A stretch of 64,000 nt of DNA from NCBI RefSeq assembly GCF_000787835.1, contig NZ_BBPP01000007.1, positions 87,292-151,291 of the forward strand, in the 5' to 3' direction. Of the stretch, positions 25,707 through 64,000 are shown piece after piece. Every line of letters starts with the position of its first letter. Position 1 is the first letter of the stretch. The DNA is from Streptacidiphilus melanogenes. GTDB lineage: Bacteria; Actinomycetota; Actinomycetes; Streptomycetales; Streptomycetaceae. A program made the translations under genes and the position numbers. Below the pieces are notes generated by a model, which saw only the letters and a program-made list of their open reading frames with translations, was not told where the DNA came from and made no database searches.

Positions 25707-27725
25707 ATGCAGGCGCCACAAGGCATCAGGGTGCGCCGGCTGCGCCTGGCTGGCATCGACCGCAGCTACGACGTCGACTTCACAGTCGACGGGCGCGTAA
25801 GAGGTCTATCCGTCGTCGCAGGGGCGTTCAGCTCCGGCAAGACCGCCGTCCTTGAGTTCATCGCCTATGGCTTGGGCGCCCGCAGGCACCCCCGCCATCA
25901 AGAAGTGCTCCGGAAGGTCCGGTCCTGCCTCCTTGAGGTCGAGCTCTCCGGACAGTCGCATGTCATCGAGCGTTCCGTGGGCGAGCCATCGAAACTTGCA
26001 TACGTGCGTCGCGGCACCCTGGCGCAGCCGGCCTCCACCATGGCCGAACCACGTACGCTGGAGCCCGCCGGAGCAGCGGACAGCCTCTCCACTTTGCTGT
26101 TGAGTCACTGCAAACTCGAAGGCGTTCAGCTGCGTGAAGCGCCCACCAACCGTGAGTCGCGCACGGACCCGCTCAGCATCCGTGACCTCATGTGGCTCGC
26201 CTTCCTGCCGAACGAACGCGTCGCCGACAAGAACTTCCTCTTCGAGAACGACCGCGCCCGCAAGCACAAGCTCCGGCAGGTCGTCGACGTTGTGTTTGGC
26301 GTGCATGACGATCGAGCCATCGAACTCGGCAACCGCATCCAGGAACTCGACCGGCGTCTGGCTCAGGCCCGCGGCGAGCTGGCAGCGGCCCGAGCGTTCG
26401 TCGCGGAGCAGGACCCCTCCGCGCTTGACGACACACCCGTGCAGGGAGAGTCGGAGCAAGAACTGGCTGAGATAACAGAGCAGTTGGCCGTCCTGGATTT
26501 GCAAGCTCAGTCGGCCACAGACTTCGCTGCCCGATTGCGCCGGGAACATCAGGAGGCTGCGAAGGCGGCACGAACCGCGGCGGCGGTCCTACGTGACCAC
26601 GAAACCCAGATCGCGCGACTTCTCCCCTTGCGCGCCCAATATGCTGATGATCTCCTCAAGCTCGGCATGCTGGCCCAAGCCAGGCAACTCTTCGATCCGC
26701 TACGGGTGACGACCTGCCCGGCCTGCCTGCACCGGCTGGCCCAGACGCCTACCGCAATGAACGGGCAGTGCAGTCTGTGCCATCACGAACTGGGTGCCCC
26801 CGAAGGCGATGCGCCGGCTGGCTCCATGGATGACCGACACGGAGCCGAGGATGGACAACTCGATGTTGCGGCGGAGATCAGGTCCACCAGGGCCCGCCTC
26901 AAGGAGATCACCACTTACATCGAAGATCTCGACTCCTCCATGGAGACGCTGAAGCTCCGAGCCGAGGAGGCCAGCCTGGACGAGCAACGGGCCGCCGCGA
27001 TCCTCGACCAAGCCACGTCGCCAGCGGTCTCCACCTTCCTCGTGGCCCGCGACGACCTCTATCGCCGCCGGGAGCAGGCCCTACACCGACTCGAACTGAC
27101 CCAAAACACCGTCAAGCTGCAGGAAGGCCTCGCCAAGCGAGCCAGCGCTGTTGACCGCCAGCAAGCCCAGGTGGCGCGCCTGCGCGAGGAGCTCGCCGAC
27201 CTCGGCGACGCCACACGGGACCGCGACGCCATCATCGCTCAGATCAGCAGCCGATACGCCGCGCTGCTAAGCGATTGGCGCTACCCGAAACTCAGCAACC
27301 CCTACATCGACACCGCCCTCACACCATTCGTCAGGGGAGAGCGCTACCAGGAGGCATCCTCAGGTGCCCGCACACTGATCACCCTCGCCTGGCAGCTGGC
27401 CGTCTTCGAAGTCGCCACCGAACTGGGCGCTGCACACCCAGGTTTCCTCATGATCGACAGCCCTCAGAAGAACCTCGGTCACGGCGGCACGCTCGACGTC
27501 ACGATCGCGGATGCCGTCACCATCGACGACTTCTACCATCACCTGTCCACCTGGCTTGCCGAACGAGGCTCGGGGGCGCAGCTCATCATCGCCGACAACA
27601 GCCCACCGCTCATCGCTGAAGGCGACGTCGTGGTCCGATACAGCCGGAGCGAAGACCGGCCGCCGTACGGCCTGATCGATGATGAGACCAGCTCGGAGGA
27701 GGCACCCGCCACTTCTCACGGGTGA
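25707..27725 (+). CDS. SMC/Rad50-like ABC ATPase, DUF3732 family (ABC-3C)
   Basis: 672 aa. Walker A GAFSSGKT at residues 39-46, long coiled-coil arms (about 205-330 and 370-530) separated by a zinc-hook-like double CxxC (Cys337/Cys340 and Cys355/Cys358), ABC signature ASSGARTLITLAWQLAVFEV, and Walker B FLMIDSPQKN with Asp584. DUF3732 ATPases are the motor or sensor of ABC-3C systems. ATG start with GGAAGG 9 nt upstream. A decayed copy of its last 450 nt remains in module B at 51013-51460. Confidence 0.85.
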   Translation: MQAPQGIRVRRLRLAGIDRSYDVDFTVDGRVRGLSVVAGAFSSGKTAVLEFIAYGLGARRHPRHQEVLRKVRSCLLEVELSGQSHVIERSVGEPSKLAYVRRGTLAQPASTMAEPRTLEPAGAADSLSTLLLSHCKLEGVQLREAPTNRESRTDPLSIRDLMWLAFLPNERVADKNFLFENDRARKHKLRQVVDVVFGVHDDRAIELGNRIQELDRRLAQARGELAAARAFVAEQDPSALDDTPVQGESEQELAEITEQLAVLDLQAQSATDFAARLRREHQEAAKAARTAAAVLRDHETQIARLLPLRAQYADDLLKLGMLAQARQLFDPLRVTTCPACLHRLAQTPTAMNGQCSLCHHELGAPEGDAPAGSMDDRHGAEDGQLDVAAEIRSTRARLKEITTYIEDLDSSMETLKLRAEEASLDEQRAAAILDQATSPAVSTFLVARDDLYRRREQALHRLELTQNTVKLQEGLAKRASAVDRQQAQVARLREELADLGDATRDRDAIIAQISSRYAALLSDWRYPKLSNPYIDTALTPFVRGERYQEASSGARTLITLAWQLAVFEVATELGAAHPGFLMIDSPQKNLGHGGTLDVTIADAVTIDDFYHHLSTWLAERGSGAQLIIADNSPPLIAEGDVVVRYSRSEDRPPYGLIDDETSSEEAPATSHG

Positions 27726-27771
27726 TTGAAGCGCGAGACTATTGCCCCGGGTTGGGTTCTGCCGCGCCTGC

Positions 27772-27777
27772 TAGCGT
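27772..27777 (+). promoter_or_regulatory. -10 box giving leaderless start of endonuclease VII-like gene A
   Basis: TAGCGT ends 7 nt before the ATG at 27785, so transcription should begin at the A of the start codon. The same box and spacing precede the paralogue at 51915. Confidence 0.45.
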
Positions 27778-27784
27778 GCCGGGC

Positions 27785-29137
27785 ATGCCCTACCGTGCTA
27801 CCCCGCGCCGCGTAGACGGCGTCTTGTCCTTGGCAGGCGCGGACGCCTTGTGGGCTGAGCTGATGGCCAGCAGCGCAGTCCCGGTCACTCTGGGAGCATT
27901 CACCCGCCCCCCTGCCGATCCGCGTACCGGCTACGTACTGCTCGGCGCACGCGTTGTTCAGGTGACGGAGCGGGCCGACGGTGCGTGGAACGTCCGTGAG
28001 GCTGACGTACGCCGGGCGGCGGTGGAACTGAGCGCGTTCCAGGTCAACACGAGTGGTCTGGTCCGTGTTGCTCCGTTCCACGGTTCACTGAGAGCGGGAC
28101 AGGATGACGCGCGGGCGCTGCGGTGGCGTCAGCGCCTTGGCCAGGAATGGGTCCGCGAACGTACTGGCGTTGCTCCTGGGCCGCCAGCTGGCGTTGGCGA
28201 CCATCTGCCGCACCTGGCGGGGGTGGACTGGCGCCGGGCTCTCGTCACGCGGAGGGGAGCGGGCACAGGCGACATGTGGTGGCTGCCCCGCGCGCTGGTG
28301 AAATTGCTGGACACGGCTGAGCATGCTGAGGCGCAGTGGTCGCTGGCCGTGCGGACCTGCCAGAGGTGCGGGGCCGTGGCGGACCAGCCCGACCAGTGGC
28401 GCGTCCGAACCGACAACGGCCAGCAGACGGTCTGCCCCAGCTGCCGCACCACCACGCTGCGCCAGTACAAGGGGGAGCTGAATGGGCACCGATACTCGGT
28501 GCTCAGCAAGAAGCGCGCCGCGCTGGAGGTCTCCGGGTGGATCTGCGCCGTCTGCCGGGACGCACCAGCCGCCGTGCTGGACCACTGCCACGAGCACGGC
28601 TACGTCCGCGCTCCCGCGTGCCAACCCTGTAACACGCGAGAACGGCCCAACTACCTCTACAGCAACGACGTCTACGTGACAGGCCGCTATGTGCCACTGT
28701 TCCGCACCCAAGTCCAGGACTGGCTGCGGCACTGGCACCGCTGCGACGGCTGCCGCGCCCGTACCACGCTGCCACTGCCGCACTTGGCCGCACTGACCGC
28801 CATCCTGGTCGGCGAACCACTGCGCCCGACCCACCGCGACGCTGGCAGCTCTCGTGGGCGAAGGCCCTGCGGTGAACTGCGCGCCTCCTGGACCGGCAGC
28901 CATCACGCTCCAGGCTCGTGCATGATCAAGCTGAGCGTGGACTACTGCCCCAGTGGAGAGCACCGCACCTTGGCCCAGGTCATGTACCGAGAGGCCGTCG
29001 ACCGGTTTGGCACTTGGCTGGCCGAGACCGCGCCCGCAGTGGCTGCAGCGGCCGGCGCGGGAAGACATGAGGCGATCCCTGCCCAGTTCCGACCCGTTAT
29101 TCCGGACGCCAGCGGCGAGGGACAGGGCCTGTTCTGA
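27785..29137 (+). CDS. Recombination endonuclease VII-like protein (copy A)
   Basis: 450 aa. The N-terminal 200 residues have no fold I recognise. Next comes a zinc knuckle (CQRCGAVADQ ... CPSC). The endonuclease VII/HNH-like core follows: ICAVCRDAPAAVLDHCHEHG then YVRAPACQPCNTRERPNYLY, matching the C-x2-C ... D-H-C-H ... C-x2-C-N signature. After it come more cysteines (RCDGCRARTTLP). Probable Mg2+-dependent DNA nuclease. It starts 60 nt after the DUF3732 gene but has its own leaderless promoter. Same length as the module B copy. Confidence 0.8.
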   Translation: MPYRATPRRVDGVLSLAGADALWAELMASSAVPVTLGAFTRPPADPRTGYVLLGARVVQVTERADGAWNVREADVRRAAVELSAFQVNTSGLVRVAPFHGSLRAGQDDARALRWRQRLGQEWVRERTGVAPGPPAGVGDHLPHLAGVDWRRALVTRRGAGTGDMWWLPRALVKLLDTAEHAEAQWSLAVRTCQRCGAVADQPDQWRVRTDNGQQTVCPSCRTTTLRQYKGELNGHRYSVLSKKRAALEVSGWICAVCRDAPAAVLDHCHEHGYVRAPACQPCNTRERPNYLYSNDVYVTGRYVPLFRTQVQDWLRHWHRCDGCRARTTLPLPHLAALTAILVGEPLRPTHRDAGSSRGRRPCGELRASWTGSHHAPGSCMIKLSVDYCPSGEHRTLAQVMYREAVDRFGTWLAETAPAVAAAAGAGRHEAIPAQFRPVIPDASGEGQGLF

Positions 29138-51716: not shown

Positions 51717-51914
51717 CGACCGCAGGGCGACCCACCGCAGGCCCAGTACCGAGCTCGTGCTCGCCCGACAGGCCGCCTGCTCATCACCCAACAGTCGATC
51801 CGCCAGGCCAGCACGCCCCTAACTCAATCACTCCCGAGGGCGTAAAGAGCGCGTCGACGCCGAGCGGCAGGCTGAGACCTGGGGTGGCGTTATGGCCCTG
51901 CTAGCGTGCCGAGC

Positions 51915-53267
51915 ATGGCACACCGCGCTCAACCGCTCCGCGCAGACGCCCTGTTGCCCATGACCGCCGTGGACACGCTGTGGGCCGAGTTGACGGCCAA
52001 CAGTGCAGTCCCGGCCGCTCCCGGAGCGTTCACCCGTGCACCGTCTGATCCGCGTCTGGGGTACGTGCTGCTCGGCGCACGTGCGGTGTCGACGGCGAAG
52101 GGGGCCGGCGGCCGATGGACCGTTCAGGAGGTCGATGTCCGCCGGGCGGCCGAGGAGCTGCGGGCGGGCGGGGCCAACATGGATGGTCTGGTCTGCGTCG
52201 CTCCATTCCGCAGCTCGACGAGCGCGGGGAACAGCGACGTGTCGACGCTGCGGTGGCGACAGCGCCTTGGGCAGGAATGGGATCGCGTCCGCGCTACCGC
52301 TGGCCGTGAGCAGCACTCGGCCTACGACGGTGACCATCTGCCGCACTTGGCAGGGATCGACTGGCGTCGGACCCTGGTGGTGCGGCCCGGGGCAGGGCCC
52401 GTTCACACGTGGTGGCTGCCCCGCGCCCTGGTGAGAGTGCTGGACGCAGCTGAGCACGCTGAGGCGCAGTGGTTGCAGGCCGCGCGGACCTGCCACGTAT
52501 GCGGGGCCGTGGCAGAACAGGCTGAACAGTGGCGTGTCCAGACAAGCACCGGTTGGCAGACGAGGTGCCCAGACTGCCGTGTGACCGCACGACGCCCCTA
52601 CCGAGGCGAGTTGGATGACCACGTGTACGCGGTGCTCAGCAGGAAGCGTTCGCTGCAGGTGTCCGAGTGGCAGTGCGCCGTGTGCCAGGAAGCCCCCGCC
52701 TCCGTGATCGACCACTGCCACGAACACGGCTACGTTCGAGCCCCGGTCTGCGCCTCCTGCAACACGCGGGAACGGCCGAACTACGTCTACAGCAACGATG
52801 TCTACGTGACCAACCGCTACGCCAGCCTGTTCCAGCTGCGGGCTGAGGCCTGGCTCACGCACTGGCACCGGTGTTCTGGATGCCGCGCCCGCACTACGTT
52901 GCCACTCGCGCACCTGGCCGCGCTGACCGCTCTCCTGGCTGGCGAGCCGCGACGGTCGACTCACCGCGACCCCACCAGCTCACGCCGGCGCAGGCCCTGC
53001 GGGGAGTTGCGCGCGTCCTGGAAGGGCAGTGCCGCTGCCCCCGGCTCCTGCGTGATCACTGTCGGCGTGGACTTCTGTCCCAGCGGGGAGCACCGCGTTC
53101 TCGCGCAGGTCTCATATCGCGACGCTGTCAATATGTTCCGTGATTGGCTGACCGAGACTGCCCCGGGCCTGGCTGCGGTGGCCGGTCCCGGCCGCCACGA
53201 CAGGGTCCCCAGGCAGTTTCGTCCCGTCATCGCGGAAACCAGCGGCGAGGGCCCGGCGCTGTTCTAA
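51915..53267 (+). CDS. Recombination endonuclease VII-like protein (copy B)
   Basis: 450 aa, paralogue of 27785-29137 with identical length. Zinc knuckle CHVCGAVAEQ ... CPDC; core QCAVCQEAPASVIDHCHEHG then YVRAPVCASCNTRERPNYVY, C-x2-C ... D-H-C-H ... C-x2-C-N intact; then RCSGCRARTTLP. TAGCGT at 51902-51907 gives the same leaderless start geometry as copy A. Predicted structure-specific or nicking nuclease; link to the cargo is inferred from its fixed position. Confidence 0.8.
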   Translation: MAHRAQPLRADALLPMTAVDTLWAELTANSAVPAAPGAFTRAPSDPRLGYVLLGARAVSTAKGAGGRWTVQEVDVRRAAEELRAGGANMDGLVCVAPFRSSTSAGNSDVSTLRWRQRLGQEWDRVRATAGREQHSAYDGDHLPHLAGIDWRRTLVVRPGAGPVHTWWLPRALVRVLDAAEHAEAQWLQAARTCHVCGAVAEQAEQWRVQTSTGWQTRCPDCRVTARRPYRGELDDHVYAVLSRKRSLQVSEWQCAVCQEAPASVIDHCHEHGYVRAPVCASCNTRERPNYVYSNDVYVTNRYASLFQLRAEAWLTHWHRCSGCRARTTLPLAHLAALTALLAGEPRRSTHRDPTSSRRRRPCGELRASWKGSAAAPGSCVITVGVDFCPSGEHRVLAQVSYRDAVNMFRDWLTETAPGLAAVAGPGRHDRVPRQFRPVIAETSGEGPALF

Positions 53268-53903: not shown

Positions 53904-54083
53904 TCCGCGGGGCGGGGGCCTCCTCGGGGCGGCACGCCAGGAGAAAGACGTCGAACGGCCACTAGGGGCTGGACATTACCCGAGGTCCATGGATCACAAT
54001 GCGCGAAGCGGACTTTGACAGACCGAGGCGCCAAGCGTCTCCATCGCATGAGGTCCGCTCGGCTGTGGGGCGGGGGGGAGTCG

Positions 54084-54923
54084 ATGAACGGCAAGCTCTG
54101 CGACGGCTGGGTCCGATCGCTCGCCGGTGAGACGCTTTGCTTCACCGGCAAGGTGCTGATCGACGGCGTGTGGACGCTCCGGAAGGACTGCGTCGCGCGG
54201 GCGCACCACCGCGGTGCGAGTTGCAAGCCGGACTTCTCGCGCAAGATCACGATCTTCGTTCACGGCGATCTCGCCAGCCAGGTGGTGACCGATGAGCAGC
54301 GAGGTTACAGCCAGAAGTTGGTGGGTGCGGAGCGGGAGCGCCACCTGGGGCATCACGTCTGTGTGGTGGATGGGGACGGCTTCGCGGACCTGCTTGTAGG
54401 GCAGCCCGCGCGGTGCCGGGAGTTGCGTCGAGCCGCCGGTGGCAGTGACCAGGTGCTTGTGCTGCCGCAGGTGGGTGACGGAATCTTGGGCGGCCCCCTC
54501 CAGCGGCATCGGACTGTCCACCATGAGCTGTCCGCGCTGTCGCTCGACCTTGACAAGCTCGACAAGGGCACGGAGGCGCATGAAGCCACCGTTGCGGCTC
54601 TCATCAAGCATCTGGCAGCACGGCAGGTCGAGGTTCGGGGCCCCGGCCGCAACGCACCTCGATTCGATGCCGGCTGGTCGCGAGGCGACGAGGTGTTCAT
54701 CGCCGAGGTCAAGAGCCTGACCGGAGCTGGCGAGGACCAGCAGATCCGCCTCGGCGTCGGACAGGTGATCGACTATGCCCATCAGCTTCGTAGCCTGAAG
54801 ACCCACGGCCAGGTCCGCCCCGTCCTGGTTCTGGAAAAGCAGCCGGCCGACTCGCGGTGGACGGCGATGGCCCGGGACAACGGGATCATCCTGACCTGGG
54901 GCCCAGGCTTCGAAGGGTGCTGA
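54084..54923 (+). CDS. BRCT domain-PD-(D/E)XK nuclease fusion
   Basis: 279 aa. Residues about 12-104 read as one BRCT domain: SLAGETLCFTGKV, CVARAHHRGASCKPDFSRKI, TIFVHGDL, YSQKLVGAE, then HHVCVVDGDGFADLL, the order found in NAD-ligase and RFC-type BRCT domains. Residues about 160-275 form a restriction-like core: helix with Glu164/Glu167, PRFDAGW (Asp195), VFIAEVKS (Glu208-x-Lys210), then QIRLGVGQVIDYAHQL. ATG with GGGGGGAG 3 nt upstream; a TTG at 54015 lacks one. Followed after 226 nt by the kinase-helicase gene. BRCT fused to a nuclease is unusual. Confidence 0.7.
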   Translation: MNGKLCDGWVRSLAGETLCFTGKVLIDGVWTLRKDCVARAHHRGASCKPDFSRKITIFVHGDLASQVVTDEQRGYSQKLVGAERERHLGHHVCVVDGDGFADLLVGQPARCRELRRAAGGSDQVLVLPQVGDGILGGPLQRHRTVHHELSALSLDLDKLDKGTEAHEATVAALIKHLAARQVEVRGPGRNAPRFDAGWSRGDEVFIAEVKSLTGAGEDQQIRLGVGQVIDYAHQLRSLKTHGQVRPVLVLEKQPADSRWTAMARDNGIILTWGPGFEGC

Positions 54924-55149
54924 CGTGGGCCAGTCGCGAGGGCTCCGGTAGCTCTGCGCGGTTGAGCTTCGCGGTCCGCGGATGAACGACGGCGGCGTCC
55001 GTGCCTGCCCGTGTAGCCCCTCGGCCGATGCAAGCTCCCTGGATTGCGTTCTTCACGCATCCGCCGCGCCATGTCCATGGGATGATCACTGCTGGCGGGC
55101 CAGGACGGCGTGGGGTGGCCGCGAGCAAAGCTGGAGGAGAGGGACCAGG

Positions 55150-58100
55150 GTGGATCTTGACCGGGTCGCCGGCCGCTTCAAGGTGACCGGGCCGCTGGGC
55201 CGGGGCAACATGGGCGAGGTCTACCTCGCCGTCGATGAGAGCCTCCCGTCGGGCAGCCGCGATCAGCAGGTCGCAGTCAAGATCATCAGCCGTACCCGGT
55301 CCGGCGCCGCGGTCTCCGCCGCTGAAGCCGCCAAGGTAGCCGCGCGATTTGCCCGCGAGGTGCGGATCATGCGCCGGCTCCACCACCCGAACCTGCCCCG
55401 GATCATCGACGGCGGACTGGACGCCAGCATCGGCGACCTGCCCTTCCTGGTCATGGAGTATCTGGACGGGCAACCGCTGTCCTGGATGCTTCAGTCGTGC
55501 CGCGACACCCGGACAAACGTGCCGGTCTCGTGGGCGGCTGCCATCAGCGCGCAGATCGCCGCGGGCTTGCACGCTGCCCACCTGGCCGGCGTCGTGCACC
55601 GCGACCTCAAGCCGGGCAACGCGATGCTGCTGCGGGGTGGGGTGGTCAAGGTCCTCGACTTCGGGATGGGCCTGATCGTCGACGACCCGGACACGACCCG
55701 CTTGACCAGCACCGACGCGACGGTCGGCACCGCAATGTACATGGCCCCGGAGCAGGCACTGGGTCGCCCGGCGACGCCCGCGACCGACTTGTACGCGCTC
55801 GGCTGCGTGCTGTACGAGCTTCTCGCGAACGTTGCGCCCTTCACCGGCGGCTCGGGTTTCGAGCTGATGCGCAAGCACGTCGATCAGCCGCCGACACCGG
55901 TGCGGACCCTGCGCGGCGCGGTCCCCGCGGGGCTCGACGCGCTGGTCATGCGACTACTGGCGAAGGACCCCGCAGATCGACCGGCCGGCGCTGACGAGGT
56001 CCATCGCGAGCTGCTGGAGCTCGCCCTCGCAACACCAGCCGAGGCGCCTCCGGCAAGCCTGGAAGGCAGCGACCCCGTGGCGGCACTGCGCGCAGATGCG
56101 GATGCGGCGCGGAGCCCTGCGGAATTGTCAGCGCCGGGGTCTACCTTCCAGAGCACAGCTACTTCTTACGGTTCGAGCGAGCGAGGGCGGCACGCGGCGA
56201 TGGACGTGTTCACGGTTCACCAGCGTCTGATCGGCGACTACCGGGCGTTCACCGAGGGCGGCACGGTGATCCGCGATGGGCGCATCGAGAAGTTCGTGGA
56301 GGAGGACCTCGATGCCAAGTCGCAGTGGCCGGACCCGTGGCTCTCCCTCAACCCGTCCTTCGCGTCCGGCGGTGCGATCGGCGACCTGGTACGCGAGGGC
56401 GTGTTGCACCCGGAGTGCGAGCGGATCTTCCAGGTCGGCAAGAGCGAAGGCGGCCGGGTCTGCGACGGCCGTCCGCTGACGCTGCACCGTCACCAGCGCG
56501 ACGCGGTCGAGGTCGCCCGGACCGGCGCGTCGTACGTCCTGACCACGGGCACGGGCTCGGGCAAGTCGCTCGCCTACATCGTCCCCATCGTCGACCGAGT
56601 GCTGCGCGCACGGGAGGCCGACACGTCCAAGCGTGTCCGGGCGATCATTGTCTATCCCATGAACGCGCTCGCCAACAGCCAGCTCAACGAGCTGGGCAAG
56701 TTCCTGCGCGACGGCTACGGCGAGGGACACGAACCGGTGACCTTCGCCCGCTACACCGGGCAGGAGACGCAGGAGCAGCGCGAGGCGATCCGCAAGAATC
56801 CGCCGGACATCTTGCTGACGAACTACGTGATGCTGGAGCTGATGCTCACCCGGCCCGACGACCGGCGGTCGCTGATCCGGATGGCGCGTGGGCTGGAGTT
56901 CCTGGTCTTCGACGAGCTGCACACCTACCGGGGCCGGCAGGGCGCGGACGTTGCGATGCTGATCCGCCGGGTGCGTGACGCCTGCGCGGCGCCCTCGGTG
57001 CAGTGCGTGGGCACCTCGGCGACGATGGCGAGCGAAGATGTTGCCGCCGACCCGCGCTCCGTGGTCGCGGAGGTCGCGTCCGAGCTGTTCGGTACGACGG
57101 TGCCGCCGGAGCGGGTGATCGGGGAGACCCTGGTCCGCGCGACGCAGGATGTGCCGGGTCCGGTGCCCGCGACCCGGATCACGGCCCCGGACGCGCCCCG
57201 CGACTTCGCGGACCTGGTGCGTGACCCGCTGGCGTCATGGATCGAGTCCACGGTGGGACTGCGCCACGACGAGGCCACGGGCCGCCTGGTGCGGCAGCAC
57301 CCCCGCACGCTGGAGCAGGTCGCCGACCAGCTCAAGGCCGAGACCGGGATGCCGTTCCCGCAGTGCACGGCAGCGATCCAGCACACCCTGGAGGCCGGCG
57401 CCCAGGCCCAAGACCCGCAGACCGGTCGCCCGCTGTTCGCGTTCCGGCTGCACCAGTTCCTGTCCAAGGGCGACACCGTCTACGTCACCCTGGAAAACGA
57501 GTCGACCCGCCACCTGACCCGTGACTACCAGCTGGAGCAGCCCGATTCGGGCGGCAAGATCCTGCTGCCGCTGGCGTTCTGCCGCGAGTGCGGCCAGGAG
57601 TACCTGACGGTGTGGCGCACCGAGCGTAGCGGCGACATCGTCTACCAGCCGCGCCGCGATGCCACCGCCACCGGAGGCAAGGCCACCGACGGCTACCTTT
57701 ACGTCTCCTCCGACCTGCCGTGGCCGCACGACCCGCAGACGGCGGTGGCCGAGCGGCGGCTCCCGGACTCGTGGTTGGAGATCGACGAGCACGGGCAGGA
57801 GGCCGTGCGCCCTACGCTGCGGGACAAGCTGCCCCGCCCGGTCACGGTCGACGTCTACGGCACCGAGGGCCGAGGCGAACTGGAGGCCACCTACCTCCCC
57901 TCGCCGTTCCGGTTCTGCCTGCGCTGCGGCGTCTCCTACGAGCAGACCCGCGGCCGGGACTTCGCCAAGCTGGCCACCCTCGACCAGGAGGGCCGTTCCT
58001 CCGCCACGTCGCTGATCTCCTCCTCGATCCTGCGCGCGTTGCGGGACATCCCCGCCGACGCACTGTCGGCGAAGGCCCGCAAACTGCTCACGTTCGTCGA

Positions 58101-61100
58101 CAACCGGCAGGACGCGTCACTGCAGGCCGGCCACTTCAACGACTTCGTCCAGGTCACGCTGCTGCGCGGGGCCCTGTACCGGGCGCTGGCCCAGACCGGA
58201 CAGGAGGGACTGCGGCACGAGGAGCTGGCCGCGCGGGTCGTCGACGCGCTCGCTCTCGCCCCGCGCGACTACGCCAGGGAGCCGGACCAGGCCCCGGCGC
58301 TGGCCCGGCGTGCCGCCGCCGCGCTGCGCGATGTGATCGCCTTCCGTCTCTACCTGGACCTGGAGCGCGGCTGGCGCGTCACCATGCCGAACCTGGAGCA
58401 GACCGGCCTGCTGAAGATCGACTACGAGGACCTCGACTGGCTCGCGGCCGAGGAAGCCAAGTGGGCCGGCTGCCACGCAGCGCTGCGCGACGCCGAACCG
58501 GGCAAGCGCGCGGAGATCATGCGCGCGCTGCTGGACGAGCTGCGCCGCGCTCTGGCGATCGAGGTGGAGTGCTTCGGCGAGCAGGAGTTCGACTCGTTGC
58601 GCCTGGGCAGCGAGCAGCGGCTGATCGACGCCTGGGTGCTGTCCAAGAGCGACCGGCCGGAGGCCGGCACCGCCTACCCGCACTCGGCGGGGCGCGGGTC
58701 ACGCCGTGCGGACCTTTACATGTCCGGGCGCGGAAAGGTCGGCCGATACCTGCGCCGCAAGGGCCAGTTCCCTGGCCACCCGCACCCAGTCAGTTTGGAC
58801 GAGGCCCAGCAGCTGATCTCGGAAATGCTGGAGGTGCTGACCGGCGCCGGGCTGCTCGTCAAGATCATGCCGACCGCTGTCGAGGACCGGTTCCGCCGCG
58901 GCTCGGCCAGCCGCCGCTGGCAGACGGAGACCAGGCCCGGCTACCGCATCCCCGCCTCGGTGCTCGTCTGGCGAGCGGGCGACGGCACGGTCGGCGCCCT
59001 GGACCCGCTCTCGCGCACCTACAACGCCGACGACGCGCCCCGGGTGAACCCCTTCTTCCGCACCCTGTATCGCGACGCCGCGAGCGGCCTGGCCGGACTT
59101 TCCGCGCGCGAACACACCGCGCAGGTCCCCTCCGAGGTGCGCCAGGAACGCGAACGCGACTTCCGTGAGGCGAAGCTGAAGATGCTGTACTGCTCGCCCA
59201 CCATGGAACTGGGCGTGGACATCTCCGACCTCAACGCGGTGTCCATGCGCAACGTCCCGCCCACCCCGGCGAACTACGCGCAGCGCTCCGGCCGCGCCGG
59301 ACGCTCCGGCCAGCCCGCCCTGGTCACCACCTACTGCGCGACCGGCAACAGCCATGACCAGTACTACTTCCGCCGCTCGGACCGCATGGTGGCGGGGTCG
59401 GTCGCCCCTCCGCGCCTGGACCTCAGCAACGAGGACCTGATCCGCTCCCACGTGCACGCCATCTGGCTGGCCGAGACCGGCGTCAAGCTCGGCAGCGCCA
59501 TGGGCGACGTCATCGAGATTGACGTCCCCGACGAGACCGTGCGCCGCCCCAACCCCGCGCTGCGCCTGCACGACCACGTCCGCGCCGCGCTCGCCGACCA
59601 GGACGCCCAGCGCCGGGCCGCCGCGCACGCCCACTCGATCCTGGACAGCCTGCAGCAGGAGCTGTCGGCCACTTCGTGGTGGGAGCCGGACTGGATCGAG
59701 CGGACGGTTCGTCAGGCCCCGGAGTACTTCGAGCGTTCCTGCGACCGCTGGCGCACCTTGTACCGGGTGGCCCTGGTGGACCAGGCCGAACAGAACCGCC
59801 GCCGCCTGGACCACACCCTCACCCAGCGAGCCCGCGACGCCGCCGCGAGCCGCCGCCGCGAGGCCGAGACGCAGCTCGCGCTGCTCACCAACGAAGGCGC
59901 AGACGGCAACTCGATGCTGTCCGACTTCAACCCCTACCGCTACCTGGCCAGCGAAGGGTTCCTGCCCGGCTACTCCTTCCCGCGGCTGCCGCTGGCCGCC
60001 TACATCTCGGCTGCCGGCCGCTACCGGGACGGCGACTACCTGCAGCGCCCCCGCTTCCTGGCCATCCGCGAGTTCGGACCGAGCGCGCTGATCTACCACG
60101 AGGGCGCCCGCTACCAGGTCACCCGCATCCAGCTCCCGCCGGATCTCACCGGTGACGTGGTCACCGGCACCGCCAAGCGCTGCCAGCACTGCGGCTACCA
60201 CCACGCCGCCGAGGACAACGCGGACGTGTGCCAGATGTGCAACGAACTTCTCGGCGAGCCCACCACCGGCCTGCTGGAGCTGCACACCGTCTACACCACG
60301 CTGCGCGAGCGGATCTCCTCCGACGAGGAAGAGCGCCGTCGCGCCGGCTTCAAGCTGATCACCTCCTACCGGTTCCACGACCACGGAAACCGGCCCGGCC
60401 GGGTGGACGCCGCCGTCACCGACCAGGCGGGAACGCCGGTGGCCCGGCTCGCCTACGGGGACTCGGCGACCGTCCGCATCACCAACACCGGCCGCGCCCG
60501 CGCCAAGGAGGACGAGCAGCCCGGTTTCTGGCTGGACCCGGTCGAGGGGCGCTGGCTGACGGAGAAGCAGGCCCAGGAAGCTTCCGGCGACTCCAGCGAG
60601 ATGCCCGCACTGGAGGACTCCGGGCAGCGCCGCAAGGTCCGCGTCCAGCCCTATGTGCAGGACCGCCGCAACATCCTGGTCCTCCAGCTCGCCGAACCGG
60701 TCGCGAAGGAGACCGCGCTGTCGCTGATGTACGCGCTGGAGCGCGGCATCGAGGCCGAGTTCGAGCTGGAGGACTCCGAGCTCACCAGCGAACTGCTGCC
60801 CCCGGACGACGGACCACGCGACCGCATCCTGTTCGCCGAGTCGGCCGAAGGAGGCGCCGGGGTCCTGCGCCGTCTGCAGGCCGAACCCGACGCCCTCGCC
60901 CGCGCTGCCCGCGAAGCCCTGCGCATCGCCCACTTCAACGAGGAAGGCGGGGACCTGGGCGGTATCAACGGCCGCAAGTGCGCCCGCGGCTGCTACGACT
61001 GCCTGCTCACCTACGCCAACCAGCTCGACCACCAGGCCGTCGACCGCCACCTCATCCCCGGACTGCTGCTGCGCTTCGCGAACGGCACCGCGCTCGCCAG

Positions 61101-61470
61101 CGGCGGCGGTGAGACCCGCAGCGAGCAGCACCGCCGCCTCGCGGATCTAGCCGAATCCAGCCTCGAAGGCGAGTTCATCGACTTCCTCAAGGCTGGCGGC
61201 TACCGGCTCCCCGACGAGGCCCAGACCTACATCGAGGCCGCACAGGCACGCCCCGACTTCGTCTACCGCCTCCCTGGCGCCGACGTGGCTGTCTTCGTCG
61301 ACGGCCCCGTCCATGACCACGACGTCGTCGCGGTCCGGGACGCAGCCGCCGAGGAGCGCCTATTCGACCAGGGCTGGGATGTGATCCGGTTCCCCGTGGG
61401 CGCGGACTGGACCGCCATCGCCGCCCGCAAGGCCCGCTACTTCGGCACCGGCACCGGAGGCACCAGGTGA
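55150..61470 (+). CDS. Ser/Thr kinase - DEAD/DEAH-type helicase - DUF1998/MZB - nuclease-like fusion
   Basis: 2106 aa. (1) Kinase about 8-290: Gly loop LGRGNMGEV, Lys44, HRDLKPGN with Asp152, DFG Asp170, GTAMYMAPEQ; all catalytic residues are present. (2) Helicase from about 345: Walker A TGTGSGKS (Lys472), box II DELH (Asp588), GTSATM, and a C-terminal helicase core with LGVDISDLNAVSM and QRSGRAGRSGQPAL. (3) Zinc clusters FCRECGQEY, FCLRCGVSY, RCQHCG...CQMC. (4) MrfA/DUF1998-type MZB cysteines Cys1944, Cys1948, Cys1951 (KCARGCYDCLLTYANQ). (5) C-terminal VSR/DUF559-like strand RPDFVY...VAVFVDGPVHD. GTG 55150 has GGAGGAG 10 nt upstream; the ATG at 54982 would add 56 low-complexity residues. 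Confidence 0.85.
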   Translation: MDLDRVAGRFKVTGPLGRGNMGEVYLAVDESLPSGSRDQQVAVKIISRTRSGAAVSAAEAAKVAARFAREVRIMRRLHHPNLPRIIDGGLDASIGDLPFLVMEYLDGQPLSWMLQSCRDTRTNVPVSWAAAISAQIAAGLHAAHLAGVVHRDLKPGNAMLLRGGVVKVLDFGMGLIVDDPDTTRLTSTDATVGTAMYMAPEQALGRPATPATDLYALGCVLYELLANVAPFTGGSGFELMRKHVDQPPTPVRTLRGAVPAGLDALVMRLLAKDPADRPAGADEVHRELLELALATPAEAPPASLEGSDPVAALRADADAARSPAELSAPGSTFQSTATSYGSSERGRHAAMDVFTVHQRLIGDYRAFTEGGTVIRDGRIEKFVEEDLDAKSQWPDPWLSLNPSFASGGAIGDLVREGVLHPECERIFQVGKSEGGRVCDGRPLTLHRHQRDAVEVARTGASYVLTTGTGSGKSLAYIVPIVDRVLRAREADTSKRVRAIIVYPMNALANSQLNELGKFLRDGYGEGHEPVTFARYTGQETQEQREAIRKNPPDILLTNYVMLELMLTRPDDRRSLIRMARGLEFLVFDELHTYRGRQGADVAMLIRRVRDACAAPSVQCVGTSATMASEDVAADPRSVVAEVASELFGTTVPPERVIGETLVRATQDVPGPVPATRITAPDAPRDFADLVRDPLASWIESTVGLRHDEATGRLVRQHPRTLEQVADQLKAETGMPFPQCTAAIQHTLEAGAQAQDPQTGRPLFAFRLHQFLSKGDTVYVTLENESTRHLTRDYQLEQPDSGGKILLPLAFCRECGQEYLTVWRTERSGDIVYQPRRDATATGGKATDGYLYVSSDLPWPHDPQTAVAERRLPDSWLEIDEHGQEAVRPTLRDKLPRPVTVDVYGTEGRGELEATYLPSPFRFCLRCGVSYEQTRGRDFAKLATLDQEGRSSATSLISSSILRALRDIPADALSAKARKLLTFVDNRQDASLQAGHFNDFVQVTLLRGALYRALAQTGQEGLRHEELAARVVDALALAPRDYAREPDQAPALARRAAAALRDVIAFRLYLDLERGWRVTMPNLEQTGLLKIDYEDLDWLAAEEAKWAGCHAALRDAEPGKRAEIMRALLDELRRALAIEVECFGEQEFDSLRLGSEQRLIDAWVLSKSDRPEAGTAYPHSAGRGSRRADLYMSGRGKVGRYLRRKGQFPGHPHPVSLDEAQQLISEMLEVLTGAGLLVKIMPTAVEDRFRRGSASRRWQTETRPGYRIPASVLVWRAGDGTVGALDPLSRTYNADDAPRVNPFFRTLYRDAASGLAGLSAREHTAQVPSEVRQERERDFREAKLKMLYCSPTMELGVDISDLNAVSMRNVPPTPANYAQRSGRAGRSGQPALVTTYCATGNSHDQYYFRRSDRMVAGSVAPPRLDLSNEDLIRSHVHAIWLAETGVKLGSAMGDVIEIDVPDETVRRPNPALRLHDHVRAALADQDAQRRAAAHAHSILDSLQQELSATSWWEPDWIERTVRQAPEYFERSCDRWRTLYRVALVDQAEQNRRRLDHTLTQRARDAAASRRREAETQLALLTNEGADGNSMLSDFNPYRYLASEGFLPGYSFPRLPLAAYISAAGRYRDGDYLQRPRFLAIREFGPSALIYHEGARYQVTRIQLPPDLTGDVVTGTAKRCQHCGYHHAAEDNADVCQMCNELLGEPTTGLLELHTVYTTLRERISSDEEERRRAGFKLITSYRFHDHGNRPGRVDAAVTDQAGTPVARLAYGDSATVRITNTGRARAKEDEQPGFWLDPVEGRWLTEKQAQEASGDSSEMPALEDSGQRRKVRVQPYVQDRRNILVLQLAEPVAKETALSLMYALERGIEAEFELEDSELTSELLPPDDGPRDRILFAESAEGGAGVLRRLQAEPDALARAAREALRIAHFNEEGGDLGGINGRKCARGCYDCLLTYANQLDHQAVDRHLIPGLLLRFANGTALASGGGETRSEQHRRLADLAESSLEGEFIDFLKAGGYRLPDEAQTYIEAAQARPDFVYRLPGADVAVFVDGPVHDHDVVAVRDAAAEERLFDQGWDVIRFPVGADWTAIAARKARYFGTGTGGTR

Positions 61471-61540: not shown

Positions 61541-64000
61541 ATGACGATCACGTACACCCCCGGATCTCTGGTCTCCACGCGCGGCCGGGAGTGGGTGGTG
61601 CTCCCCGACACCACCGACGACATGCTGGTGCTGCGCCCGCTCGGCGGCTCCGACGACGACATCGCCGCCGTCTTCCCCGCCTTCGAGCACGTCGAGGCCG
61701 CCCAGTTCGTCCGCCCCGAACCCGACGACATCGGTGACGCGCGCGCCGCCGGACTGCTGCGCGCCGCGCTGCGCATCGGCTTCCGCTCCGGTGCCGGCCC
61801 CTTCCGCTCCCTCGCCGGCATCGCTGTCGAACCGCGCGCCTACCAGCTCGTCCCGCTGCTCATGGCCTTGCGCCAGGACGTCGTGCGGCTGCTGATTGCC
61901 GACGACGTCGGCATCGGCAAGACCGTGGAGGCAGCGCTGATCGCCAGCGAACTCCTGGCCCAGGGTGAGGCGTCCGGGCTGGCCGTGCTGTGCTCCCCGG
62001 CGCTGGCCGAGCAGTGGCAGGACGAACTGCGCACCAAGTTCGGCATCGACGCCGAACTCGTGCTCTCCTCCACCGTGCCGCGCCTGGAGCGCGGCCTGAA
62101 CCTGGGCCAGTCCCTGTTCGACCGCTATCCGAACGTCATCGTCTCCCTCGACTTCATCAAGTCCGCCCGTCACCGCGAGGACTTCCTGCGGCATTGCCCC
62201 GACCTGGTCATCGTTGATGAGGCCCACACCTGTGTTGCGGCCGACCCGACCACCGCGGGCAAGCAGAGCCAGCTGCGCTACGAGCTGCTGCGCCGCCTCG
62301 CCGAGGACACCGACCGGCACCTGCTGCTGGTCACCGCCACCCCGCACTCGGGCAAGGTGGACGCCTTCCACAACCTCCTCGGCCTGCTCAAGCCGGAACT
62401 GGCGCACTCCGACATGAACCGGGAAGCCAGCCGCGTCGAGCTGGCCAAGCACTTCGTCCAGCGTCGCCGCGCCGACATCCGCCGTTTCCTCGACCAGGAC
62501 ACCGAGTTCCCGTCCGACCGCTTCTTCAAGGACGAGACCTACCGCCTCACCCCCGCCTACCGCGCGCTGCTCGACGACGCCATCGCCTACGCCGGAGAGC
62601 GCGTCACCGACGCGAACGGCGTCGGCAAGCGCGAGGCCCGCATCGCCTGGTGGTCCGCGATCGCGCTGCTGCGCTCGCTCGTCTCCTCCCCGCGCGCCGC
62701 CGCCCAAACGCTGCGGACCCGCTCCGCCTCCGCTGTCGCCGCCACCGCCGAAGAGGCCGACGAGCTCGGCCGCCCGCTCACCCACGACCTCGCCGACGAC
62801 GAGAACCTGGAAGGCCTCGACGCCGCCCCCGGCGCCGACGCCGGTGCCGCACAGCACCGCCTCGCCGAACTCGCCGACCGAGCCGATCAGTTGGAAGGCG
62901 CCGAGCACGACAAGAAGCTCGCCGCCCTCATCAAGCACCTCAAGGCCCTGCTCGCCGACGGCTACAACCCCATCGTCTTCTGCCGCTACATCCCCACCGC
63001 CGAGTACGTCGCCGATCACCTGGGCGGCGCCCTCGGCCGCAAGACCGTCGTCCGCGCCGTCACCGGCAGCATCTCCCCACAGCAGCGCATCGCCCGCATC
63101 GAGGAGCTGGCCGACGCCACCTCCGAGGACCCCGCCGCCCGCCGCGTCCTGGTCGCCACCGACTGCCTGTCCGAAGGCGTCAACCTCCAGCACCACTTCG
63201 ACGCCGTCGTCCACTACGACCTCGCCTGGAACCCCACCCGCCACGACCAGCGCGAAGGCCGCGTGGACCGGTTCGGGCAGCAGCGCGACGAAGTCCGCGT
63301 CATCACCCTCTACGGCAGCGACAACGGCATCGACGGCAAGGTCCTGGAGGTGCTGATCAAGAAGCACCGCCAGATCCGCAAGGACCTCGGCATCTCCGTT
63401 TCCGTTCCCGACGAGACCGCCAGCGGCGTCACCGACGCCATCATCGAGTGGCTGCTCATGCGAGACCAGCAGCTGGAGCAACTCCCGCTGTTCGAGGCGA
63501 CGATCGACCGGCACGCCGAGGCGCTGGAGGCCGACTGGAAGTCCACCGTCGAGCGCGAGCGCGCCTCCCGGTCCCGCTTCGCCCAACAGGCCATCCACCC
63601 CGAGGAAGTCGCCCGCGAAGTCTCCTCAATCCGTGCCGCGCTCGGCGCAACCGGCGAGGTCCGCACCTTCGTCCGCGACTCGCTGCGCGCGCTCGGCGCC
63701 GACCTGCGCGGCGGCACCCCCACCGACGGCGACTTCACCGCCGCCGTCGACGGCACCCCCGCAGGCCTGCGCGACGCCTTCGCCCCCTACGTAGGCGGCC
63801 TCGCGATCACGAGCGGCCGGCCCATCCCCTTCCGCACCACGCCGGCCATCGCCCGCGGCGAAGCGGCCCTCGTCCGCACCGACCCCGTTGTCGGCGCACT
63901 CGCCGGATACGTCCTCAACGCGGCCCTCGACCGCCAGTTGCCGGAGCCTCACCGCCCCGCCCGCCGCTGCGGCGTCATCCGCACCCACGCGGTCACCACC
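61541..64000 (+). CDS. DrmD-like SNF2/RapA-family helicase (3' end outside window)
   Basis: 820 codons, open to the last base. N-terminal SLVSTRGREWVVLPDTTDDM and VEPRAYQLVPLLMALRQDVV are typical of the DISARM helicase DrmD. Walker A DDVGIGKT (Lys127), DEAH box VIVDEAHT (Asp226), TATPHSGK motif, and C-terminal helicase motifs VATDCLSEGVNLQHHFDAVV and DLAWNPTRHDQREGRVDRFG. ATG start 70 nt after the fusion gene, with GGAAAGAAG upstream, so one operon. In class 1 DISARM, drmD is followed by a methyltransferase gene; whether that holds lies outside the window. Confidence 0.85.
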   Translation, partial: MTITYTPGSLVSTRGREWVVLPDTTDDMLVLRPLGGSDDDIAAVFPAFEHVEAAQFVRPEPDDIGDARAAGLLRAALRIGFRSGAGPFRSLAGIAVEPRAYQLVPLLMALRQDVVRLLIADDVGIGKTVEAALIASELLAQGEASGLAVLCSPALAEQWQDELRTKFGIDAELVLSSTVPRLERGLNLGQSLFDRYPNVIVSLDFIKSARHREDFLRHCPDLVIVDEAHTCVAADPTTAGKQSQLRYELLRRLAEDTDRHLLLVTATPHSGKVDAFHNLLGLLKPELAHSDMNREASRVELAKHFVQRRRADIRRFLDQDTEFPSDRFFKDETYRLTPAYRALLDDAIAYAGERVTDANGVGKREARIAWWSAIALLRSLVSSPRAAAQTLRTRSASAVAATAEEADELGRPLTHDLADDENLEGLDAAPGADAGAAQHRLAELADRADQLEGAEHDKKLAALIKHLKALLADGYNPIVFCRYIPTAEYVADHLGGALGRKTVVRAVTGSISPQQRIARIEELADATSEDPAARRVLVATDCLSEGVNLQHHFDAVVHYDLAWNPTRHDQREGRVDRFGQQRDEVRVITLYGSDNGIDGKVLEVLIKKHRQIRKDLGISVSVPDETASGVTDAIIEWLLMRDQQLEQLPLFEATIDRHAEALEADWKSTVERERASRSRFAQQAIHPEEVAREVSSIRAALGATGEVRTFVRDSLRALGADLRGGTPTDGDFTAAVDGTPAGLRDAFAPYVGGLAITSGRPIPFRTTPAIARGEAALVRTDPVVGALAGYVLNAALDRQLPEPHRPARRCGVIRTHAVTT

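What the first reader, a model, noticed from the sequence alone, without database searches (positions are those of the whole stretch)
55150..61470. Kinase fused directly to a DUF1998 helicase
The helicase part begins at about residue 350 with MDVFTVHQRLIGDYRAFTEG, which looks like a complete helicase N-terminus. An intact kinase with all catalytic residues (Lys44, Asp152, Asp170) has been joined in front, and the helicase's C-terminus carries a VSR-like nuclease strand. One chain therefore holds sensing or signalling, translocation and cleavage modules.
Basis: partly seen in the sequence, partly recalled or inferred. Interest (0 to 1): 0.82.

Follow-up and report, generated by a model that had tools for sequence, protein, structure and literature searches.

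The report
Protein kinase fused to antiphage helicase-nuclease
A single giant bacterial protein joins a working-looking protein kinase to the DNA helicase and nuclease of a recently described phage-defence system; the join is real and is kept across many actinobacteria, which makes phosphorylation control of this kind of defence directly testable.

Summary
Window 55150-61470 (+) is one open frame of 2106 aa: a Hanks-type Ser/Thr kinase, a short disordered linker, and a YprA/DUF1998 helicase ending in a Vsr/DUF559-like nuclease. It is no sequencing join: the same architecture stands in 43 of 100 loci and in 41 of 80 named loci, spread over 8 actinobacterial families (the sets overlap and were picked by similarity to the window). 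The kinase lysine, HRD and DFG residues are invariant in 43 of 43, and kinase dN/dS is 0.12-0.18 in 10 of 10 hand-picked pairs. In 7 of 100 and 5 of 80 loci a kinase is a separate, divergently transcribed neighbour. SNF2/BrxHII-like and PglX-like genes follow, the order of ARMADA Type I (PMC12458937), whose main text never mentions a kinase (supplements not readable). On helicase trees the fusions form one clade with one nested loss. Most likely the kinase is a phospho-switch that controls the ARMADA complex, as PglW is needed in Pgl/BREX-2; target and sign are unknown. New variant of a known kind.

The parts
55150..61470 (+). Kinase-YprA helicase-Vsr-like nuclease, 2106 aa, GTG start
55180..55986 (+). 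Hanks-type Ser/Thr kinase domain (K44, HRD D152, DFG D170)
   Evidence: well modelled but for two loops; closest solved folds M. tuberculosis PknB, TMt 0.88
56071..56112 (+). Post-kinase segment DPVAALR... (other fused and divergent kinases have W..xDP here; this copy lacks the W)
56110..56193 (+). Linker, residues 321-348, pLDDT under 50
56200..56202 (+). Conserved internal ATG (Met351), start of the helicase part; no Shine-Dalgarno enrichment
56488..57039 (+). DEAD/RecA1 domain (GTGSGKS, DELH)
59095..59310 (+). Helicase_C / RecA2
60724..61005 (+). MZB/DUF1998 zinc-binding domain
   Evidence: best fold match of the C-terminal model is MrfA 6znp, E 4e-7 with low TM-scores
61060..61467 (+). Vsr/DUF559-like PD-(D/E)xK nuclease domain (D2036 invariant in 35 of 35, D2051 in over 90%)
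61541..64000 (+). SNF2 (BrxHII/DrmD/DpdE-like) helicase gene, runs on to 64453 beyond the window

Best explanation
The gene encodes the YprA helicase-nuclease of an ARMADA Type I antiphage operon (YprA, then BrxHII-like SNF2 helicase, then PglX-like adenine methyltransferase; here followed by McrBC-like genes) that has gained an N-terminal Ser/Thr kinase. Most likely the helicase part engages foreign or replicating DNA and the Vsr-like domain cuts it, while methylation tells self from non-self. The kinase, held by a short flexible linker, phosphorylates the helicase itself or its two partner proteins and so switches the complex between a safe and a restricting state. Shown here: architecture, intact catalytic residues, purifying selection, operon context, one clade of fusions, split relatives. 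Inferred: every activity, the targets and the sign of the switch.
For: Single frame, supported start. Catalytic Lys, alpha-C Glu, HRD, Asn, DFG, APE, subdomain IX and XI residues are invariant in 43 of 43 fused and 8 of 8 separate kinases. dN/dS of the kinase is 0.12-0.18 in 10 of 10 hand-picked pairs (some share a member), of the first 900 helicase residues 0.08-0.18, of the linker 0.14-0.70. The SNF2 gene follows the helicase in 38 of 38 fused, 4 of 4 divergent and 26 of 27 kinase-less loci with room; the methyltransferase in 37 of 38, 4 of 4 and 25 of 26. Fusions form one clade, 100*. A W..xDP tail after the kinase is in 38 of 43 fused (30 of 41 in the named set) and 7 of 7 divergent neighbours (5 of 5 in the named set), against 0 of 56 other kinases. 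Precedent: PglW kinase activity is needed for Pgl defence, which also uses a PglX methyltransferase (PMC4365076, abstract and passages).
Against: No target, phosphosite or activity was tested. Kinase-less relatives with the same operon are common (34 of the best 80), so the core does not need a kinase. L197, nested in the fused clade, has no kinase. A coarse clustering of neighbours (22 largest clusters shown, not named by profiles) showed no evident phosphatase or FHA partner. In 5 of 15 fused proteins aligned the nuclease motif is altered (L185, L213, L204, L189, L203), so cleavage may be lost there. The window's own tail has lost the W of the tail motif.
Confidence: 0.58

Rival explanations
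1. The kinase is an effector, not a regulator: activated when the helicase meets phage DNA, it phosphorylates host or phage proteins and stops growth or phage development.
For: The kinase domain matches PADLOC PD-T4-6 kinase models (best E 4.7e-79) and mad6 (9.4e-66).
Against: Those models also hold a general kinase domain, so such matches say little about function. ARMADA Type II protects without growth arrest (PMC12458937, section read). A tether to the helicase favours local targets.
Confidence: 0.2
2. The kinase itself senses something (a phage protein or a metabolite), and the helicase is only its scaffold.
For: Kinase and helicase also occur as separate neighbour genes.
Against: Pfam finds no further domain between kinase and helicase, and residues 321-348 are modelled as disordered. 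Membrane segments were not looked for.
Confidence: 0.1
3. The fusion is incidental: a neighbouring housekeeping kinase gene was joined by chance and is tolerated.
For: This genome has 29 kinase matches, this one included. One loss is seen (L197).
Against: Purifying selection, invariant catalytic residues, and retention in relatives only 49-51% identical (L236, L205).
Confidence: 0.08
4. Sequencing or assembly error joined two genes.
For: None found.
Against: Same architecture in 43 of 100 and 41 of 80 loci, with a linker of 43-64 aa.
Confidence: 0.01

Closest known systems
ARMADA Type I (Bell et al. 2025, PMC12458937; abstract, Results parts 1-2 of 3, Conclusions and figure legends read)
   Same: YprA helicase with DUF1998 and C-terminal Vsr-type nuclease, then BrxHII-like helicase, then PglX-like methyltransferase, in the same order
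   Different: N-terminal kinase; 'kinase' occurs 0 times in that paper's main text
Druantia DruE
   Same: PADLOC's best match of the helicase part is DruE3, E 9e-103
   Different: The match is partial; no Druantia partner appears in the rows shown for the 6 neighbours scanned against PADLOC
DISARM (DrmD, DrmMI, DrmAB)
   Same: Downstream SNF2 and methyltransferase match DrmD and DrmMI models
   Different: Helicase and DUF1998 are one protein; the two NCBIfam DrmD scores are under their cut-offs (315 of 610, 116 of 950)
Dpd (DpdE, DpdJ)
   Same: The SNF2 protein matches one PADLOC model labelled DpdE over its whole length, 1565 bits
   Different: NCBIfam DpdE 182 bits of 500 and DpdJ 88 of 800; no deazapurine gene among the neighbours scanned. 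The PADLOC label may cover ARMADA proteins
Pgl / BREX-2 PglW
   Same: A kinase working with a PglX methyltransferase in actinobacteria
   Different: PglW is a separate NERD-kinase-wHTH protein (PMC12839542, passages); its model scores 45 bits against a cut-off of 990
MADS mad6 and PD-T4-6 kinases
   Same: Kinase domain similarity
   Different: NCBIfam MAD6 137 bits against a cut-off of 460

Membership tests
ARMADA Type I | YprA/DUF1998 helicase gene followed by BrxHII-like and PglX-like genes in that order | tested here: met
ARMADA Type I | C-terminal Vsr-type nuclease, predicted active | tested here: met
   Family by weak but repeated profile matches; acidic residues intact in the window copy. 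Activity not tested
ARMADA Type I | One zinc-binding insertion in the OB region (Type II has two) | tested here: inconclusive
   One pair of CxxC motifs (C1678/C1681, C1694/C1697) in the alignment; the OB fold was not delimited
ARMADA Type I | BrxA-like helical insert after RecA1 | not tested
   Helices are predicted there but were not compared with BrxA
ARMADA Type I | Place in the published YprA tree | not tested
   The reference sequences were not at hand and were not sought
ARMADA Type II | BrxHII and PglX genes before the YprA gene | tested here: not met
   YprA comes first
ARMADA Type II | RelE-GajB helicase after the YprA gene | tested here: not met
   SNF2 and methyltransferase follow, then McrB-like, McrC and OGG-like genes; genes further on were not all scanned
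DISARM | DUF1998 part encoded apart from the helicase (DrmB), PLD nuclease DrmC | tested here: not met
   One protein; no PLD match among the genes scanned
Dpd | Deazapurine DNA-modification genes | not tested
   Only the neighbours were scanned; none matched such a family
Pgl/BREX-2 | PglW and PglZ | tested here: not met
   PglW model far under its cut-off; no PglZ match in the genes scanned
Hanks-type Ser/Thr kinase | Catalytic Lys, HRD Asp, DFG Asp | tested here: met

The most novel reading that the evidence does not exclude
The helicase is the phage-DNA sensor and the fused kinase its output: engagement of foreign DNA moves or frees the tethered kinase onto its targets, so that a restriction motor directly drives a protein-phosphorylation signal inside one polypeptide.
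Probability: 0.25. Interest if true: 0.82.

Novelty: new variant of a known kind. Interest (0 to 1): 0.57.

Why it matters
Phosphorylation has been proposed as the control of a PglX-type defence in Streptomyces (PMC4365076), with the kinase as one protein among several. Here kinase, motor and nuclease are one chain in a three-gene core, with kinase-less and split relatives as natural controls, so the role of the kinase can be tested by one point mutation and one domain deletion.

Tried and rejected
Missed stop or frameshift at the junction: rejected by relatives. Internal translation start at the conserved Met351: 9 of 43 fused genes have a Shine-Dalgarno match of 4 or more there, against about 28% of random in-frame sites and 30 of 46 starts of unfused genes; not supported. 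A conserved upstream partner: the 302-aa gene at 54015-54923 has no match in the 49 other loci. Fused-specific Ser/Thr columns (14 at the thresholds used) may be ancestry only; no phosphosite is claimed. The 3170-aa frame in L248 is read as a frame error. L043_none in the tree is the second half of a broken fused gene, not a loss.

One or two kinase acquisitions: open. Against one: the divergent kinases are only 39-41% identical to the window kinase while free-standing kinases elsewhere in related genomes reach 46-49%; in a quick tree they group with two kinases of the window's own genome (97*); the careful tree also keeps them apart from the fused ones (89/81). For one: a single clade is not rejected (AU p 0.19) and both share the tail motif, which was noticed before it was counted.

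Rows dropped: the tree left out L050 and L060; kinase trees used 18 and 15 of 43 fused kinases; one search left out L232 and L248; folding used 41 of 71 and 40 of 68 relatives prepared, which itself left out L193, L232, L234 and L248. Two of ten nuclease dN/dS values rest on 14 and 20 codons.
Full report
OBSERVATION. The frame 54982-61470 (+) is open throughout. The start is most likely GTG 55150: it carries a ribosome site, as does a start at the same point in 42 of 43 fused relatives counted with the window, and the upstream ATG does not. The 2106-aa protein has Pkinase, DEAD, Helicase_C and MZB/DUF1998 domains (that call numbers from 54982, so subtract 56). Third-position GC over the frame is 0.91.

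IS IT AN ARTEFACT? No. A search of 297 genomes of the family gave 47 loci of this helicase at E below 1e-53: 35 with the kinase in the same frame (two of them, G075 and G121, broken further down), 4 with a separate divergent kinase, 7 without and one fragment. Order, class and phylum samples brought the set fetched to 100 loci: 43 fused, 7 divergent, 50 without a kinase in the DNA at hand (L060, broken just after the helicase start, is counted as fused). Of those 50, six had under 2.2 kb upstream to look at, several are fragments and three are distant helicases. Fused loci that were not fetched are not counted. A scan of named genomes kept the best 80 of 520 relatives: 41 fused, 5 divergent, 34 without. 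The sets overlap and favour the window's kin, so the counts must not be added or read as frequencies. Fused rows come from Streptomycetaceae, Micromonosporaceae, Nocardiaceae, Pseudonocardiaceae, Streptosporangiaceae, Thermomonosporaceae, Nocardiopsidaceae and Glycomycetaceae, plus two MAG contigs without a family, one labelled Melainabacteria and probably misbinned.

EVOLUTION. On helicase trees the fused rows form one clade (100*), next to the divergent-kinase rows (support 92, 100*; both FastTree, without bootstrap). One unfused row, L197 of Streptomyces sp. AC1-42W, is nested inside: a loss. Fused kinases are one clade (100/100, 15 rows) and divergent ones another (100/100, 7 rows). Whether both stem from one acquisition is open: sequence identity and the free trees speak against it, the AU test does not reject it (p 0.19), and a tail motif W..xDP just after the kinase domain speaks for it: 38 of 43 and 30 of 41 fused, 7 of 7 and 5 of 5 divergent neighbours, 0 of 56 other kinases (one of them counted twice); plain DP occurs in 30 of the 56, and four other, more distant kinases in these loci lack W..xDP. 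The window copy keeps DPVAALR without the W.

SELECTION. Catalytic positions are invariant in 43 fused and 8 separate kinases; of the glycine-rich loop, the first Gly is kept in 38 of 43 fused and the third in 7 of 8 separate ones. In 10 of 10 hand-picked close pairs kinase dN/dS is 0.12-0.18, like the helicase (0.08-0.18), while the linker ranges from 0.14 to 0.70. This says that the kinase is kept, most simply for its activity.

STRUCTURE. The kinase is modelled well; residues 176-186, in the activation segment, and the linker 321-348 are not, as for a flexible switch on a tether. Its nearest solved folds are mycobacterial PknB kinases. The C-terminal model matches the DUF1998 helicase MrfA (E 4e-7) and next DrmAB (1e-3), both with low TM-scores. 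The terminal 136 aa match DUF559 (27 of 35), MTES_1575 (26 of 35) and Vsr (7 of 35) at E of 1 or less; a profile search of the PDB gave a mismatch endonuclease (1cw0) only at E 1.5, behind unrelated chains. Asp2036 is invariant and Asp2051 nearly so. In 5 of 15 fused and in some kinase-less relatives the VDGP.H part is altered.

CONTEXT. Downstream lie a SNF2 helicase (61541-64453), an N6 methyltransferase with NPPW (64453-68487), an AAA gene that I read as McrB-like (68571-70478; its first 346 aa match Mrr_N), McrC (70475-71725) and an OGG-like glycosylase (71780-72469), close together on one strand. The SNF2 gene follows the helicase in 68 of 69 loci with room. McrB-like genes were seen in 6 of 49 other loci within the stretch at hand and are not core. 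The commonest neighbour cluster (22 of 40 fused loci of the first series) is a regulator-like gene on the other strand beyond the methyltransferase; I did not follow it up. The order is that of ARMADA Type I in PMC12458937 (sections read). The BrxA-like insert and the place in the published tree remain unchecked, the zinc insertion is inconclusive. The SNF2 protein's best PADLOC model is labelled DpdE, its NCBIfam matches are under the cut-offs.

MECHANISM. The Pgl system of Streptomyces needs the kinase activity of PglW, and its authors propose that phosphorylation leads to activation of the PglX methyltransferase (PMC4365076, abstract and passages). ARMADA has a PglX-like methyltransferase. 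I therefore think that the fused kinase sets the activity of the ARMADA complex. Rivals are listed. Every step after 'conserved, intact and selected' is inference.

LITERATURE. 'Kinase' occurs 0 times in the main text of PMC12458937. Searches for DUF1998 + kinase + helicase + defense, YprA + kinase domain + antiphage, threonine kinase + DISARM + helicase + Streptomyces + phage, ARMADA + kinase + others, 'kinase domain fused' + helicase + phage defense and DruE + kinase + DUF1998 + Streptomyces listed no paper that by title or abstract reports this fusion. The CoCoNuT paper (PMC11090510) names a DISARM-like cassette beside McrBC and kinases elsewhere, but not this fusion, in the passages seen. 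A 2026 BREX survey (PMC12839542) has no DUF1998 or YprA in its main text. Supplements and most subscription papers were not searchable, so it may be known there.

Noticed in passing
window 54015-54923 (+): 302-aa frame just upstream with no Pfam match and an EVKS stretch that might be a PD-(D/E)xK core; no match in 49 related loci.
   Followed up: partly
window 27722-29137 and 51906-53267 (+): Two separate genes with an Endonuclease VII domain.
   Followed up: no
L197 (Streptomyces sp. AC1-42W): Helicase nested in the fused clade but without kinase: an apparent natural deletion, useful as a control.
   Followed up: partly
L089, L220, L242, about 4.8-4.9 kb upstream of the helicase: A second, different kinase gene on the helicase strand beside divergent-kinase loci; a weaker, cut-off one in L052.
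   Followed up: no
L215, L220, L237, L238, L242 and L049-L052, L087-L089: Divergent kinases end in a strongly conserved tail, PWAEVDPLRPF..PMGP.ARPVR.WA, perhaps a docking element.
   Followed up: partly
first-series fused loci, beyond the methyltransferase (for example L038, L025): A regulator-like gene on the other strand in 22 of 40 loci, and an ATPase-like small gene in 7; they may be ordinary streptomycete genes.
   Followed up: no
plasmid hits H6-H15 (Deinococcus radiodurans): Relatives of this helicase without the kinase part of the match, on a plasmid of D. radiodurans, in some records in several pieces.
   Followed up: no
L005 2171-2860, that is 71780-72469 in window numbering beyond its end: OGG-like 8-oxoguanine glycosylase gene directly after McrC.
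   Followed up: no
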